From Chloroflexota bacterium (GTDB lineage: Bacteria; Chloroflexota; Dehalococcoidia; Lucifugimonadales; UBA3495), in assembly GCA_009840165.1 (NCBI GenBank), contig VXOG01000098.1, forward strand, positions 1-64,000: 64,000 nucleotides of DNA, given 5' to 3'. The position numbers and the translations under genes are program-made. Position 1 is the stretch's first letter, and every line of letters begins with the position of its first letter. Of this stretch, positions 15,580 through 18,963 are shown piece by piece. Below the pieces are notes generated by a model. The model had not been told where the DNA came from. It saw only the letters and a list, made by a program, of their open reading frames with translations, and did no database searches.

Positions 15580-17118
15580 ATGAAGTATGACGTAATTATC
15601 ATCGGCGCCGGGTCTGCCGGCTGCACGATGGCGGCCCGCCTGACCGAGGATCCGGACCGCTCGGTGCTGCTGCTGGAAGCCGGGCCGGACTACCCCGATT
15701 TTGAACTGTATCCCGACGACCTGAAGTACGGCTACGACCAGACTGCTTCGGCGGTCAACGCGCCGCACAACTGGACCTTCTGGGCGCAAAACCCCGGGCA
15801 GGCCAACCCCATGCCCGTGCCCCGTGGCCGGGTGGTGGGGGGTTCCTCGGCCATCAACGGCCAGGTGCTGCTGCGAGGCGTGCCGGAGGACTACGACGCC
15901 TGGGCAGCGCTGGGTAACGACGAGTGGGGGTTCACCAACTGTCTGCCTTACTTCCGCAAACTGGAAACCGACACTGACATCACCGACGACTTCCACGGCA
16001 ACACTGGGCCGATACCGGTGCGCCGGCATCGTCGGGAGGACTGGTTGCCGGCGCAGGTGGCCTTCTGGAATGCTTGTCGCGCCGAGGGCTATCCCGACGA
16101 CCCTGATATGAACCATCCCGATTCGGGCGGCGTGGGCCCCATCCCCATGAACAACCCCAACGGCGTCCGCATGAGCACGTCCATCACGTACCTGCGGGAG
16201 GCGCGGCACCGACTGAACCTGACCATCCGCGCTAACGTCACCTGCCGCCGTATCGTTTTCGAGGGCAACCGGGCCGTGGGCGTCGAGGTTGAGAGCGGCG
16301 GCGAGGTGTTCACCGTCGAGGGCGACGACATCATCCTTAGTTCGGGATCCATCGGATCGCCGCAGCTGCTGCTGCTGTCTGGCGTCGGCCCGGCCGACCA
16401 CCTGCGCGAGATGGGCATTCCGGTGGTGCATGAACTGCCCGGCGTTGGTCAGAACCTCCGCGACCATCCCAACATCCGCGTGCCGGTGAAAGTGAAGGAC
16501 GACTTCCCGCTAGACCCGTCGGCGCCACGATCCCAGGTCGCGCTGCGGTACACCGCCACGGGCAGCCACCTTCGGAACGACATCCAGATCATGCAGTCCT
16601 CATTCTCGTCGCCCATCGCCGGCGATCCGCTGGAAGCCGAGGGCATACGGTTCACTTGCATCCTGGAGCTGGCCGTGGGTTCCGGACACCTGCAACTGGC
16701 CAGCACCGACCCCAATGAGCAGGTGGCCCTGAACTACAACTACTTCCAAGAGGAGTTTGACCTTTCGCGGATGCGCGAGGCCGTGCGACTCTGCGTGAAC
16801 CTGCTGGACAGCGACCACTACCGGGACGTGGCCGACGAATTGCTCGACCCGCTTCCGGCAGACCTGGAGAGCGACGAGGCGCTGAACGATTGGCTGAAGC
16901 GCACCGTCAGCACTTCGCAGCACATCTCCGGTACCTGCAAGATCGGTACGCCCGACGACCCGATGGCCGTGGTTGACCAGCACTGCCGGGTGTACGGCCT
17001 CGAGGGCCTTCACATCGCCGACGCATCAGTGATGCCCGACTGCATACGCGCCAACACCAACTGCACGACTATAATGATCGCCGAGCGCAAGGCCGACTGG
17101 ATCCGCGCCGGCGAATAG
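15580..17118 (+). CDS. GMC family FAD oxidoreductase (choline dehydrogenase-like)
   Basis: 512 residues. DVIIIGAGSAGCTMAARL at the N-terminus binds the ADP part of FAD; GRVVGGSSAINGQVLLRG near residue 85 and GSIGSPQLLLLSGVGP near 260 are the two GMC signatures; SQHISGTCKIG and the later MPDCIRANTNC hold the active-site His and Asn positions. These enzymes oxidise alcohols such as choline or sugars. AGGAGG stands upstream of the ATG. No BetB aldehyde dehydrogenase is near, so choline is not assured. Confidence 0.93.
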   Translation: MKYDVIIIGAGSAGCTMAARLTEDPDRSVLLLEAGPDYPDFELYPDDLKYGYDQTASAVNAPHNWTFWAQNPGQANPMPVPRGRVVGGSSAINGQVLLRGVPEDYDAWAALGNDEWGFTNCLPYFRKLETDTDITDDFHGNTGPIPVRRHRREDWLPAQVAFWNACRAEGYPDDPDMNHPDSGGVGPIPMNNPNGVRMSTSITYLREARHRLNLTIRANVTCRRIVFEGNRAVGVEVESGGEVFTVEGDDIILSSGSIGSPQLLLLSGVGPADHLREMGIPVVHELPGVGQNLRDHPNIRVPVKVKDDFPLDPSAPRSQVALRYTATGSHLRNDIQIMQSSFSSPIAGDPLEAEGIRFTCILELAVGSGHLQLASTDPNEQVALNYNYFQEEFDLSRMREAVRLCVNLLDSDHYRDVADELLDPLPADLESDEALNDWLKRTVSTSQHISGTCKIGTPDDPMAVVDQHCRVYGLEGLHIADASVMPDCIRANTNCTTIMIAERKADWIRAGE

Positions 17119-17141: not shown

Positions 17142-17169
17142 CGTCATTCCCGCGAAAGCGGGAATCCAG
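17142..17169. repeat. dispersed palindrome, family C (CATTCCCGC)
   Basis: Perfect hairpin with CATTCCCGC arm and GCGGGAATCCAG end, 15 bases before the selenoprotein start. It may lie in its leader. Confidence 0.9.
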
Positions 17170-17183
17170 AGTAGGAGAGGAAA

Positions 17184-17963
17184 ATGACAACCGCAGTACG
17201 AGAAGTCCACGTTTACACCAACCCTGGTTGATTCAGCTGTCGGACGCTGGAGGAATTCCTCGCGTCCAACGGTGTTCAGTATGAACACCATGACCTGCTG
17301 ACCGACGAGGCGGCCCGCGAAGACCTGAAGTCCCGGGGCGTACTCTCCGCGCCCGTGACCATCATCGACGGCACGGAAGTGATCATCGGGTACTACCCCA
17401 AGAAGCTGATCCCGGCGCTGGGCTTGGAGGACGCTCCCATCGACCTGTCAGGCAAAACGGCCTGGCTGGGCGACAAGTACCGCGTGATCCTGGAAGCCGC
17501 CGTCCGCGCCACGCTGGAGCTTTCCGAAGAGCAGCTGTCCCAGCCGGTGCAGTGGCGGCCCGAGATGCTCCGCGACACGTTGGTGCATATCGTGTCGTTC
17601 CCGGAACTGGCCTACACTAGCCGCACCCGGGGATCTATGAGCTCCGATGATATGCGGGCCTGTCGCGAGAGCCTGGCGCACCTCCAGAAACCGCAGGAGA
17701 TTGCCGACTATGCCTGCGGCGTCGCTGACGATCTCGTTGCCTTCCTCAACAGCGGCGATACCGAGGGATTCGACCGGGTGGTGCCGGCCCACTACGGCGG
17801 TGAGGTCACCGTGCTGGAACTGCTCAACATCATCCTCAGCCACAGCACGCACCACCTCAAGCAGGTGTACTGGTTCATGGACACCAACCTGAACCAGCCG
17901 GCGAAGACTCCCGCCACTGAGGGCGACATGGAGGGCATCTTCACGCCGGCCCAACTGATCTAA
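17184..17963 (+). CDS. probable selenoprotein: glutaredoxin-like domain fused to DinB-like domain, in-frame TGA = Sec16
   Basis: Reading from the ATG at 17184 (GGAGAGG site five to eleven bases upstream) gives MTTAVREVHVYTNPG, then TGA at 17229-17231, then FSCRTLEEFL, and stays open to TAA at 17961. The TGA falls exactly on the first position of the U-x-x-C redox motif (Sec16, Cys19) of a glutaredoxin/NrdH-like fold, followed by the cis-Pro segment LSAPVTIIDG. Residues from about 85 form a four-helix DinB-like domain with HSTHHLKQVYW. A hairpin directly after the TGA resembles a bacterial SECIS. Ordinary annotation would start the gene at 17355 and lose the redox site. The fusion suggests a thiol/selenol-transfer enzyme. 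SelB and tRNA-Sec were not seen here. Confidence 0.8.
17242..17267 (+). promoter_or_regulatory. SECIS-like hairpin after the in-frame TGA
   Basis: GGACGC (17242-17247) pairs with GCGTCC (17262-17267). Two unpaired bases T-G (17248-17249) are followed by an inner stem GAGG/CCTC around the loop AATT (17254-17257). The loop begins 22 bases after the TGA, within the distance usual for bacterial SECIS elements, and a bulged U below a short upper stem is also found in the E. coli fdhF element. Confidence 0.65.
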
Positions 17964-17991: not shown

Positions 17992-18963
17992 ATGGCAGAA
18001 CCACTGATAGCGTTGGACGAGTTGCCCGAAACCCGGGTGATCATAGCCGGCTGGCGCCGTCAGTGGTCTGACGGCGGCAACATATCCAGCGGAATGCCGC
18101 GCTGGTTGATCGACAAACTGTCGGCGCGGCGCATCGGGCAGATGACCGACGAAATTTCCCGGATGTGTTTCCCGTTCCAGGTGGCCGGCACTCACGACCT
18201 GTACCGGCCCCGCGCCGCGTTCAACGAGGGCTTGCCCAGCCGTCCCATGCAGTGGGACAACGGGTTCTGGGACGCCGGTGATGGTCTGGTGATATTCTTA
18301 GGTATCGAGCCGTGGTACCGGATTGACTTGTATGGCCAAGCCTTCTTTGAAGCAGTGTCGGCGCTGGGCAACCCCAAAATCGCGGCGGTGGAAGGTTACA
18401 ACGGGCCCGCGCCGCCAGAGCAGGAACGGCGGATTTCGTGCGTGTACAGCAAAGCGGCAATGGCCGACGAGTTGCGCCAGCACGGTATGCTGTTTTCCAG
18501 CTACGGGTCCCAGCAGAGGCAGGGACCGACTATCGGGATGGCTATGGTGAGCTTGGCCCACTACCAGCATCCCGACGTGGAGATGGTGCGAGTGGGCGCC
18601 ATGGCCCCGATGTTCCCGTTCAGCGGCGGCAGCGGCGGCCAGCTGGGTATCACCACTGACCACCGCGCCTTCTACGACATCATGCGCCGGCTCCGTGCGT
18701 TGTACTCTCTGGACATCGATCTGTCGGATCTCAGGCCACGGTATGAGGAAGAGGCCGAACGGCTCCAGGAATCGCTTGATAGGGTGGCGCAAAGGAATGA
18801 TGAGGCCCGGCGTTACATCGAGCGAGTGCGGGGAGAGCACAACTTCATGCCCTTCGAGGAACCCGTCGAACTGCCGCCCGGCATCGAGGGAACCCTCGCC
18901 GACATCCTGGGGCAATTCGACCTGCCTGGCGAGGATGACGACGGCCTGGCCGGGGCGCGTTGA
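17992..18963 (+). CDS. PAC2 family protein
   Basis: 323 residues resembling the PAC2 (proteasome assembly chaperone 2-like) family seen in actinobacteria and Chloroflexota. TRVIIAGWRRQWSDGGN opens the first strand-turn, and ADELRQHGMLFSSYGSQQRQGP and GMAMVSLAHYQHPDVEM mark the second half; the C-terminal 90 residues include a charged coiled-coil-like stretch (RYEEEAERLQESLDRVAQRN) usual for bacterial members. Role unknown. It follows the selenoprotein by 28 bases with a GAAGGAAA ribosome site and is likely in the same transcript. Confidence 0.75.
   Translation: MAEPLIALDELPETRVIIAGWRRQWSDGGNISSGMPRWLIDKLSARRIGQMTDEISRMCFPFQVAGTHDLYRPRAAFNEGLPSRPMQWDNGFWDAGDGLVIFLGIEPWYRIDLYGQAFFEAVSALGNPKIAAVEGYNGPAPPEQERRISCVYSKAAMADELRQHGMLFSSYGSQQRQGPTIGMAMVSLAHYQHPDVEMVRVGAMAPMFPFSGGSGGQLGITTDHRAFYDIMRRLRALYSLDIDLSDLRPRYEEEAERLQESLDRVAQRNDEARRYIERVRGEHNFMPFEEPVELPPGIEGTLADILGQFDLPGEDDDGLAGAR

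What the first reader, a model, noticed from the sequence alone, without database searches (positions are those of the whole stretch)
17184..17963. Probable selenoprotein: glutaredoxin-DinB fusion with in-frame TGA at the redox site
The TGA at 17229-17231 lies exactly at the first position of the C-x-x-C motif (U16-F-S-C19) of a glutaredoxin-like domain. Coding continues in the same frame for 243 codons, with the cis-Pro segment and then a DinB-like four-helix domain. A hairpin directly after the TGA (17242-17267) has an 11-base outer/inner stem, a bulged T-G and a loop 22 bases from the TGA, fitting bacterial SECIS rules. TGA is a normal stop elsewhere in this window, so code reassignment is unlikely. 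A glutaredoxin-DinB selenoprotein is not a standard textbook form.
Basis: partly seen in the sequence, partly recalled or inferred. Interest (0 to 1): 0.92.

Follow-up and report, generated by a model that had tools for sequence, protein, structure and literature searches.

The report
Selenium-containing glutaredoxin fused to DinB enzyme
A marine bacterium of the SAR202 kind carries a gene whose apparent stop codon is almost certainly read as the rare selenium amino acid selenocysteine, giving a redox protein joined to a metal-binding enzyme domain, a combination we did not find described before.

Summary
The finding holds. TGA 17229-17231 lies at the first position of a glutaredoxin U-x-x-C motif (U16-F-S-C19); the frame runs on 243 codons through a glutaredoxin and a DinB domain to TAA. 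All 41 named-contig orthologues spanning the codon have TGA there and end on TAA or TAG. Wider searches found TGA in every Chloroflexota match reaching the site. Two full-length Cys homologues exist on Roseomonas and Variovorax plasmids. The genome encodes tRNA-Sec, SelA, SelB and SelD, SelD itself with an in-frame TGA. The hairpin after the TGA is stronger than synonymous codons give, unlike ten control segments; covariation is modest. U16, C19, cis-Pro57 and His135/220/224 are invariant over 18 divergent members. So it is a selenoprotein glutaredoxin fused to a DinB-type, probably metal-binding, domain. Each half is known; the fusion is absent from a 119-entry 2026 list. Its enzymatic role, a thiol-dependent reductase or transferase in oxidative catabolism, is inferred.

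The parts
17173..17177 (+). Shine-Dalgarno-like AGGAG, 6 bases before the start codon
   Evidence: read by eye from the sequence; similar purine runs precede the start in many orthologues (listing, not scored)
17184..17963 (+). Glutaredoxin-DinB selenoprotein gene, 259 codons plus TAA, one in-frame TGA
17205..17423 (+). Glutaredoxin domain (about residues 8-80): UxxC at 16-19, cis-Pro57, Gly69
   Evidence: PF00462 7.5e-10 over 8-65; secondary structure of the model; cGrx1 7c10 and BC3987 3zij/3zit by Foldseek
17229..17231 (+). TGA codon read as selenocysteine (Sec16)
   Evidence: TGA in 42 of 42 rows; Cys in two distant full-length homologues
17237..17272 (+). Putative bacterial SECIS hairpin in the coding region just after the TGA; consensus apical loop 17253-17255 beginning with G
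   Evidence: synonymous-site conservation
17451..17888 (+). DinB (S-transferase-like) domain, about residues 90-235, with His135, His220, His224
   Evidence: PF12867 5.9e-8, PF05163 7.7e-6; helices in the model; His triad invariant
15580..17118 (+). GMC-family FAD oxidoreductase next door, recurrent neighbour; possible partner
   Evidence: PF00732 6e-46; a GMC homologue in 31 of 42 loci
17992..18963 (+). PAC2-family protein gene downstream, recurrent neighbour of unknown link
   Evidence: PF09754 1.2e-10; homologue in 17 of 42 loci

Best explanation
The gene at 17184-17963 encodes a selenoprotein. Ribosomes reach UGA at codon 16, SelB bound to the following mRNA hairpin delivers Sec-tRNA, and a 259-residue protein is made: an N-terminal glutaredoxin with redox motif U16-F-S-C19, and a C-terminal DinB four-helix bundle with a three-His site of the metal-binding type. 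Shown here by sequence: the conserved Sec codon, the machinery, the hairpin, purifying selection on both sides of the TGA, and joint conservation of both active sites. Inferred (my estimate about 40%): the DinB domain binds a metal-activated low-molecular-weight thiol, as bacillithiol and mycothiol transferases do; the Sec-glutaredoxin in cis carries out or resolves the selenide/thiol exchange on the substrate (S-conjugate, disulfide or peroxide). It would thus be a one-chain thiol-dependent reductase/transferase, probably serving oxidative catabolism, since GMC oxidoreductases are recurrent neighbours.
For: TGA in 41 of 41 orthologues spanning the site plus the window; the search peptides did not include the site. 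All 41 orthologous frames run 241-245 codons past the TGA and end on TAA or TAG. pN/pS 0.31 for residues 7-15, 0.26 for 17-80 and 0.35 for 81-259. Order search: 62 of 64 matches contain a TGA; the other two do not reach the site, one at a contig end. Class search 17 of 17 and phylum search 6 of 6 matches with TGA (sets overlap, a few matches are partial). Position checked in fetched loci: 52 of 54 with TGA, the two others Cys. tRNA-Sec 66.4 bits, ARAGORN anticodon TCA; SelA 552, SelB 363, SelD 374 bits; over cut-off in only 5, 1, 2 and 2 of 14 control genomes. selA in 43 of 50 family genomes and 18 of 18 good ones. Hairpin mean z -1.84 against synonymous resampling, controls -0.63 to +0.15; 95.4% of 432 pair cells standard. 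Invariant U16, C19, P57, H135, H220, H224; three His are the only residues fully conserved in eight B. subtilis bacillithiol transferases (PMC5815605 passages). Model pLDDT 87.6, matches to glutaredoxins and YfiT/DinB structures.
Against: No protein-level or selenium-labelling evidence exists. Covariation is thin: two pairs with two-sided changes and 10 further pair types, no more than in shuffles (320 and 198 of 500 reach them); of the 12 two-sided cells 11 sit at one pair and may be one inherited event. Six of 42 sequences do not reach z -1, and only 22 of 42 reach p 0.05 against synonymous resampling. Rfam found no hit in the window; the SECIS family rang in none of 14 control genomes, so it is uninformative. 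Five of 43 family genomes with the gene lack a selA match; they are 56-87% complete. The thiol partner is unknown: bacillithiol synthase BshC has no match in 50 of 50 genomes, other thiols were not tested. The GMC association could be partly chance: the genome has 17 GMC matches. The stated confidence is for the selenoprotein identity, not the enzymatic role.
Confidence: 0.95

Rival explanations
1. The TGA is a real stop: a 15-codon remnant is followed by an independent DinB gene starting at GTG 17355, the glutaredoxin being a pseudogene or an assembly error.
For: A plain ORF listing gives a 202-codon GTG ORF 17355-17963; no protein data.
Against: Same TGA in 42 of 42 sequences; glutaredoxin codons 17-80 under purifying selection, pN/pS 0.26; C19, P57 and G69 invariant in 18 rows.
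Confidence: 0.01
2. The TGA is read through as another amino acid (Trp or Cys by near-cognate or suppressor tRNA), or TGA is reassigned in this organism.
For: The frame is open under any code that reads TGA.
Against: TGA ends 4 of 13 neighbouring genes checked; full Sec machinery; the non-TGA codons seen at this place are Cys codons (15 of 15, 2 of 2 fusions); hairpin signal specific to this place among eleven segments tested.
Confidence: 0.02
3. It is a selenoprotein, but the DinB domain is not a thiol transferase: it binds a substrate or metal while the Sec-glutaredoxin acts as a peroxidase or disulfide reductase, for example clearing peroxide made by the neighbouring GMC flavoenzyme.
For: GMC homologue in 31 of 42 loci; no BshC match in 50 of 50 genomes; that GMC enzymes can be peroxide-forming oxidases is recalled.
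Against: Complete His triad as in BstA-H; whether this GMC protein is an oxidase is unknown.
Confidence: 0.35
4. The hairpin is a by-product of GC-rich coding sequence and Sec insertion uses some other signal.
For: 38 of 1756 TGAs in the window fold as strongly; six of 42 orthologues fold weakly; two of five covariation measures do not exceed shuffles.
Against: Synonymous resampling: mean z -1.84 against -0.63 to +0.15 in ten control segments of the same genes; several third positions nearly frozen around the TGA and at codons 28 and 31.
Confidence: 0.05

Closest known systems
Selenoprotein glutaredoxin (UxxC, PF00462; listed as experimentally verified in PMC13188914 Table 1, citing Kim et al. 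2011, of which only the reference was seen)
   Same: Grx profile, UxxC, Sec at first position; cGrx1 (7c10) is the top profile match in the PDB, 6.5e-23, and a top Foldseek match. That native cGrx1 is the Sec form is recalled.
   Different: No DinB domain is named for it; single-domain as recalled.
Uxx-star Grx-like (seleno)proteins (NF041212, NF041211) and HUGP/GUXX-star fusion (NF045501)
   Same: Grx-like selenoproteins; weak scores 33.6, 23.7 and 19.9 bits.
   Different: All below curated cut-offs (66, 100, 325); fusion partner not DinB by name.
DinB / S-transferase-like superfamily (BstA/YfiT, mycothiol transferase)
   Same: DinB_2 and DinB Pfam over cut-off; His triad with HxxxH; YfiT 1rxq and YjoA 3dka in Foldseek.
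   Different: Fused behind a Sec-glutaredoxin; thiol cofactor unknown; NCBIfam mycothiol transferase model not reached (17.6 of 170 bits).
Unnamed Cys-type Grx-DinB proteins WP_207446294.1 (Roseomonas marmotae) and WP_162571355.1 (Variovorax sp. SRS16)
   Same: Same two domains end to end, same His triad, Cys at the Sec position.
   Different: Cys, not Sec; 23% identity; Pseudomonadota plasmids. In Variovorax DinB_2 is just under cut-off (23.4 of 24.8).

Membership tests
Bacterial selenoprotein | In-frame TGA conserved at a redox position, Sec/Cys pairs among homologues | tested here: met
   42 of 42 TGA; Cys in two full-length homologues
Bacterial selenoprotein | Sec machinery selA, selB, selC, selD in the genome | tested here: met
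Bacterial selenoprotein | SECIS hairpin right after the UGA with G early in the apical loop, 16-37 nt away (rule recalled) | tested here: met
   loop after 22 bases; G at loop column 40 in 40 of 42; pairs 95.4%; covariation modest, and bSECISearch itself not run
Bacterial selenoprotein | Selenium in the protein | not testable with these tools
   needs 75Se labelling or mass spectrometry
Glutaredoxin (PF00462) | Pfam profile over cut-off, CxxC-type motif and cis-Pro | tested here: met
   39.3 bits, cut-off 22.9; U16/C19/P57 invariant; that Pro57 is the cis-Pro is by position and recalled knowledge
Glutaredoxin-like YruB family (TIGR02196) | Score over NCBIfam cut-off | tested here: not met
   55.6 of 88.55 bits; best NCBIfam hit
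Uxx-star family (NF041212) | Score over NCBIfam cut-off | tested here: not met
   33.6 of 66 bits
DinB / S-transferase-like superfamily | Four-helix bundle profile over cut-off | tested here: met
   PF12867 33.7 bits (cut-off 24.8), PF05163 26.4 bits (cut-off 23); model and Foldseek
DinB / S-transferase-like superfamily | Three conserved metal-binding His | tested here: met
   H135, H220, H224 invariant in 18 rows and in 15 rows with Cys forms; metal itself not tested
DinB thiol S-transferase (activity) | Transfers a low-molecular-weight thiol | not testable with these tools
   BshC no match in 50 of 50 family genomes; other thiols not tested

The most novel reading that the evidence does not exclude
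A self-contained selenoenzyme in which a metal-bound low-molecular-weight thiol in the DinB half reduces a selenenyl-sulfide formed in the glutaredoxin half, giving SAR202-type bacteria a dedicated Sec-dependent reductase or S-conjugate-processing enzyme for recalcitrant organic matter, with an as yet unidentified thiol.
Probability: 0.2. Interest if true: 0.8.

Novelty: new variant of a known kind. Interest (0 to 1): 0.6.

Why it matters
It adds a widespread selenoprotein architecture to a largely uncultured marine lineage: 43 of 50 genomes of the window's family carry it, and it may be one reason why that lineage keeps the Sec machinery. A gene caller that treats TGA as a stop would see a DinB-only ORF (17355-17963), so the gene may be widely misannotated; I did not check deposited annotations. 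Two active sites of known chemistry, conserved together on one chain, make the question of which thiol and substrate these bacteria use directly testable.

Tried and rejected
Rfam SECIS_1 (RF00031) search of the own genome gave nothing, but rang in none of 14 controls, so it says nothing. Rfam gathering scan of the window: 0 hits. Viral contigs: 29 pattern matches, none a relative. Hairpin energy alone was rejected as proof: 38 of 1756 TGAs fold as strongly. 'No other in-frame TGA' is no evidence, because each frame was cut at the next stop of any kind; the informative fact is that all 41 frames reach nearly the same length and end on TAA or TAG. The tree puts the two Cys proteins inside a group with Sec members (95/91), but their branches are long and their own join weak (84/44), so I draw no direction of Sec/Cys change; short and partial loci were left out of it. 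Bacillithiol as the thiol: no BshC match in 50 of 50 genomes. GMC paralogue with in-frame TGA as a second selenoprotein: set aside, the TGA sits at a Trp position. Short glutaredoxin matches: 15 of 70 rows have Cys codons, none matching beyond query residue 117, so not Cys forms of the fusion; matches without a fetched locus were not read at the codon. Rows left out: L092 lacks the site; L048 gave no row covering it; the SECIS alignment A1 used 36 of 42 sequences, and A4 for folding 32 of 42, the rest left out by hand as close to others; A2 (18) and A5 (15) were picked by hand.

Full report
What is there. The window lies in contig 84 of a 3.76-Mb genome in 115 contigs. Its closest named relatives are metagenome genomes labelled Chloroflexota/Chloroflexi, Dehalococcoidia and SAR202. 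ATG 17184 opens a frame with TGA as codon 16 (17229-17231) and TAA at 17961-17963. Read through, the 259-residue protein has glutaredoxin PF00462 (residues 8-65, 7.5e-10) and DinB_2 PF12867 (112-228, 5.9e-8), both over cut-off. The best NCBIfam hit is GlrX_YruB; none of the 16 NCBIfam models listed reaches its cut-off.

Is the TGA conserved? A scan of genome contigs with six peptides, none covering the site, gave 42 loci. Of these 41 span codon 16 and 41 of 41 have TGA there; the 42nd, L092, starts at residue 29. With the window, 42 of 42. All 41 frames run 241-245 codons past the TGA and end on TAA or TAG, never TGA. That one search shows no further in-frame TGA follows from how the frames were cut and is no extra evidence. 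Identity to the window runs from 95% to 61%. pN/pS is 0.31 for residues 7-15, 0.26 for 17-80 and 0.35 for 81-259, so both domains are under purifying selection as one protein.

Wider distribution. In the order, 54 of 250 genomes match at 1e-20 or better, 43 of them among the 50 of the window's family; 62 of 64 matches contain a TGA and the two without do not reach the site. One of these, G899:C219, ends at its contig end, 11837; the other is the second piece of a split match in G327. In the class, 13 of 393 genomes and 17 of 17 matches contain TGA, three of them partial (G327, G084, G142); in the phylum, 6 of 400 and 6 of 6, one partial (G084). These draws overlap. G084 and G901:C309 carry an additional TAG. 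The position was checked for the fetched loci L097-L150 (54, with duplicates): 52 have TGA as first stop, in a G-stop-x-x-C setting except L105 (a glutaredoxin-only match in Acetoanaerobium, T before the stop); the two without a stop are the Cys proteins. Some genomes carry two divergent copies with TGA (G347, G385, G273, G285).

Cys counterparts. A protein search of plasmids found 6 records, two covering over 80% of the query: Roseomonas marmotae WP_207446294.1 and Variovorax sp. SRS16 WP_162571355.1. Both have Cys exactly at the Sec column (G-C-S-S-C) and keep the His triad. Sec/Cys exchange at an aligned redox position is the classical mark of a selenoprotein (established knowledge).

Machinery. 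The genome has a tRNA-Sec (66.4 bits; ARAGORN TCA anticodon), SelB (363 bits), SelD (374 bits with one in-frame TGA, motif C-A-G-U) and SelA (552 bits). The tRNA model also gives weaker hits to ordinary tRNAs, one of them over cut-off and shown by ARAGORN to be tRNA-Ser; in the 14 control genomes the four models are over cut-off in 5, 2, 2 and 1. selA is found in 43 of 50 genomes of the family and 18 of 18 that are at least 90% complete with at most 5% contamination. Five genomes with the fusion lack a selA match; they are 56-87% complete.

SECIS. The 47 bases from the TGA fold at -21.6 kcal/mol, z -3.34. That energy is reached by 38 of 1756 TGAs in the window, so it proves little alone. Against synonymous codon resampling the segment has mean z -1.84 over 42 genes (39 below 0, 22 at p 0.05 or less; window -4.24), while ten control segments of the same genes have means between -0.63 and +0.15. 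A common 12-pair structure is standard in 95.4% of 432 cells in 36 sequences; no shuffle of 500 reaches this or the covariation score, but the numbers of pairs with two-sided change (2) and of further pair types (10) are reached by 320 and 198 of 500. Of 12 two-sided cells 11 sit at one pair. So covariation is modest. Six of 42 sequences do not reach z -1 in a simple shuffle test. The apical loop begins with G in 40 of 42. Third positions are nearly frozen at CCT GGT TGA TTC and at codons 28 (TCC) and 31 (GTT); averaged over codons 17-34 the codon variety is lower than in residues 61-259 (0.55 against 0.70-0.75) but equal to codons 7-15 (0.55).

Both active sites. In 18 fusion proteins down to 21% identity, ten positions are invariant: G15, U16, C19, L26, P57, G69, H135, H220, H224, Q227. 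With Cys forms included, in 15 rows, nine remain, all but G69. Eight B. subtilis bacillithiol transferases share three completely conserved residues, the His67, His160 and His164 of BstA (PMC5815605, passages), the same H...HxxxH pattern. The AlphaFold2 model (32 window and orthologue sequences, TGA as Cys; pLDDT 87.6, pTM 0.77) has the strand and helix order of a glutaredoxin followed by a helical bundle. Foldseek lists cGrx1 7c10 (TMt 0.94) and BC3987 for a stretch the size of the N-terminal part, and 2p1a, DR0053 6iz2, YfiT 1rxq and YjoA 3dka (best chains TMt 0.65-0.76; E 0.002-0.006) for one the size of the C-terminal part; only 6 matches in all are at E 0.001 or better, all of them glutaredoxin or thioredoxin-like. 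The assignment to the two halves is by aligned length and name; the listing gives no ranges.

Neighbourhood. A GMC flavin oxidoreductase homologue lies within the fetched flank in 31 of 42 loci, a PAC2-family gene in 17, either in 38. Among 32 loci under 80% identity to the window protein, GMC is present in 21, in two arrangements unlike the window's: downstream on the same strand (12) or upstream on the opposite strand (9). The rows are related and the genome has 17 GMC matches, so this is suggestive only. The Roseomonas Cys homologue sits beside isochorismatase, AtzG-like and amidase genes, the Variovorax one near transporter, SDR and dehydratase genes.

Mechanism. DinB-family enzymes conjugate bacillithiol or mycothiol to electrophiles (PMC4360819 passages), and metal dependence is described for them (PMC10950700 passages; PMC5815605 passages). 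I infer that the DinB half supplies a metal-activated thiol and the Sec-glutaredoxin half performs the redox exchange. This is untested. Bacillithiol is unlikely as the thiol, since BshC has no match in 50 of 50 genomes.

Novelty. The 2026 review PMC13188914 lists 119 selenoprotein families and subfamilies; I read its Table 1 (section 7, parts 1-2 of 3) and searched its text: no DinB. DinB does not occur in the held main texts of PMC9312934, PMC2398784 and PMC12013277 (term searches only); PMC2398784 mentions selenoprotein fusions to domains called Unknown_1 to _3, whose nature I could not check. Searches for selenoprotein + DinB (2 of 2 papers listed), selenoprotein + glutaredoxin + Chloroflexi (3 of 3), selenocysteine + SAR202 (2 of 2), DinB + glutaredoxin + fusion (8 of 9 listed), and two broader ones (10 of 13 and 8 of 122 listed) showed no title or abstract start describing this fusion. 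The library holds no bioRxiv collection and lacks most subscription papers. Sec-glutaredoxins and DinB transferases are each known, so I call it a new variant of a known kind.

Noticed in passing
G000:C7:11329-12252 (L017:1375-2448, - strand): The genome's SelD has an in-frame TGA near its N-terminus (C-A-G-U), so it looks like a selenoprotein itself; a second TGA in that frame near the C-terminal end is probably its stop.
   Followed up: partly
G000:C23:23739-25265 (L151): A GMC oxidoreductase paralogue has one in-frame TGA where the window's copy has Trp; more likely a nonsense change or error than selenocysteine.
   Followed up: partly
G000, 17 matches: Expansion of GMC flavin oxidoreductases in this genome, two of the matches being adjoining pieces on C7, one with a TAA.
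   Followed up: no
L103:2315-5382: The Roseomonas Cys-type fusion sits between an isochorismatase-family gene and AtzG-like/amidase genes, suggesting a catabolic operon.
   Followed up: no
L083: A contig labelled Mesorhizobium carries an orthologue whose 75 bases around the TGA equal those of Dehalococcoidia contig L095; probably a mis-binned contig.
   Followed up: no
window about 17146-17165 and about 25400: Seen by eye: an inverted repeat (ATTCCCGC...GCGGGAAT) lies between the GMC gene and the fusion; chance ORFs there and near 25.4 kb share the peptide WIPAFAGMT, pointing to a dispersed repeat.
   Followed up: no
G347, G385, G273, G285: Second, divergent Grx-DinB copies with TGA, so the family has paralogous subgroups.
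   Followed up: partly
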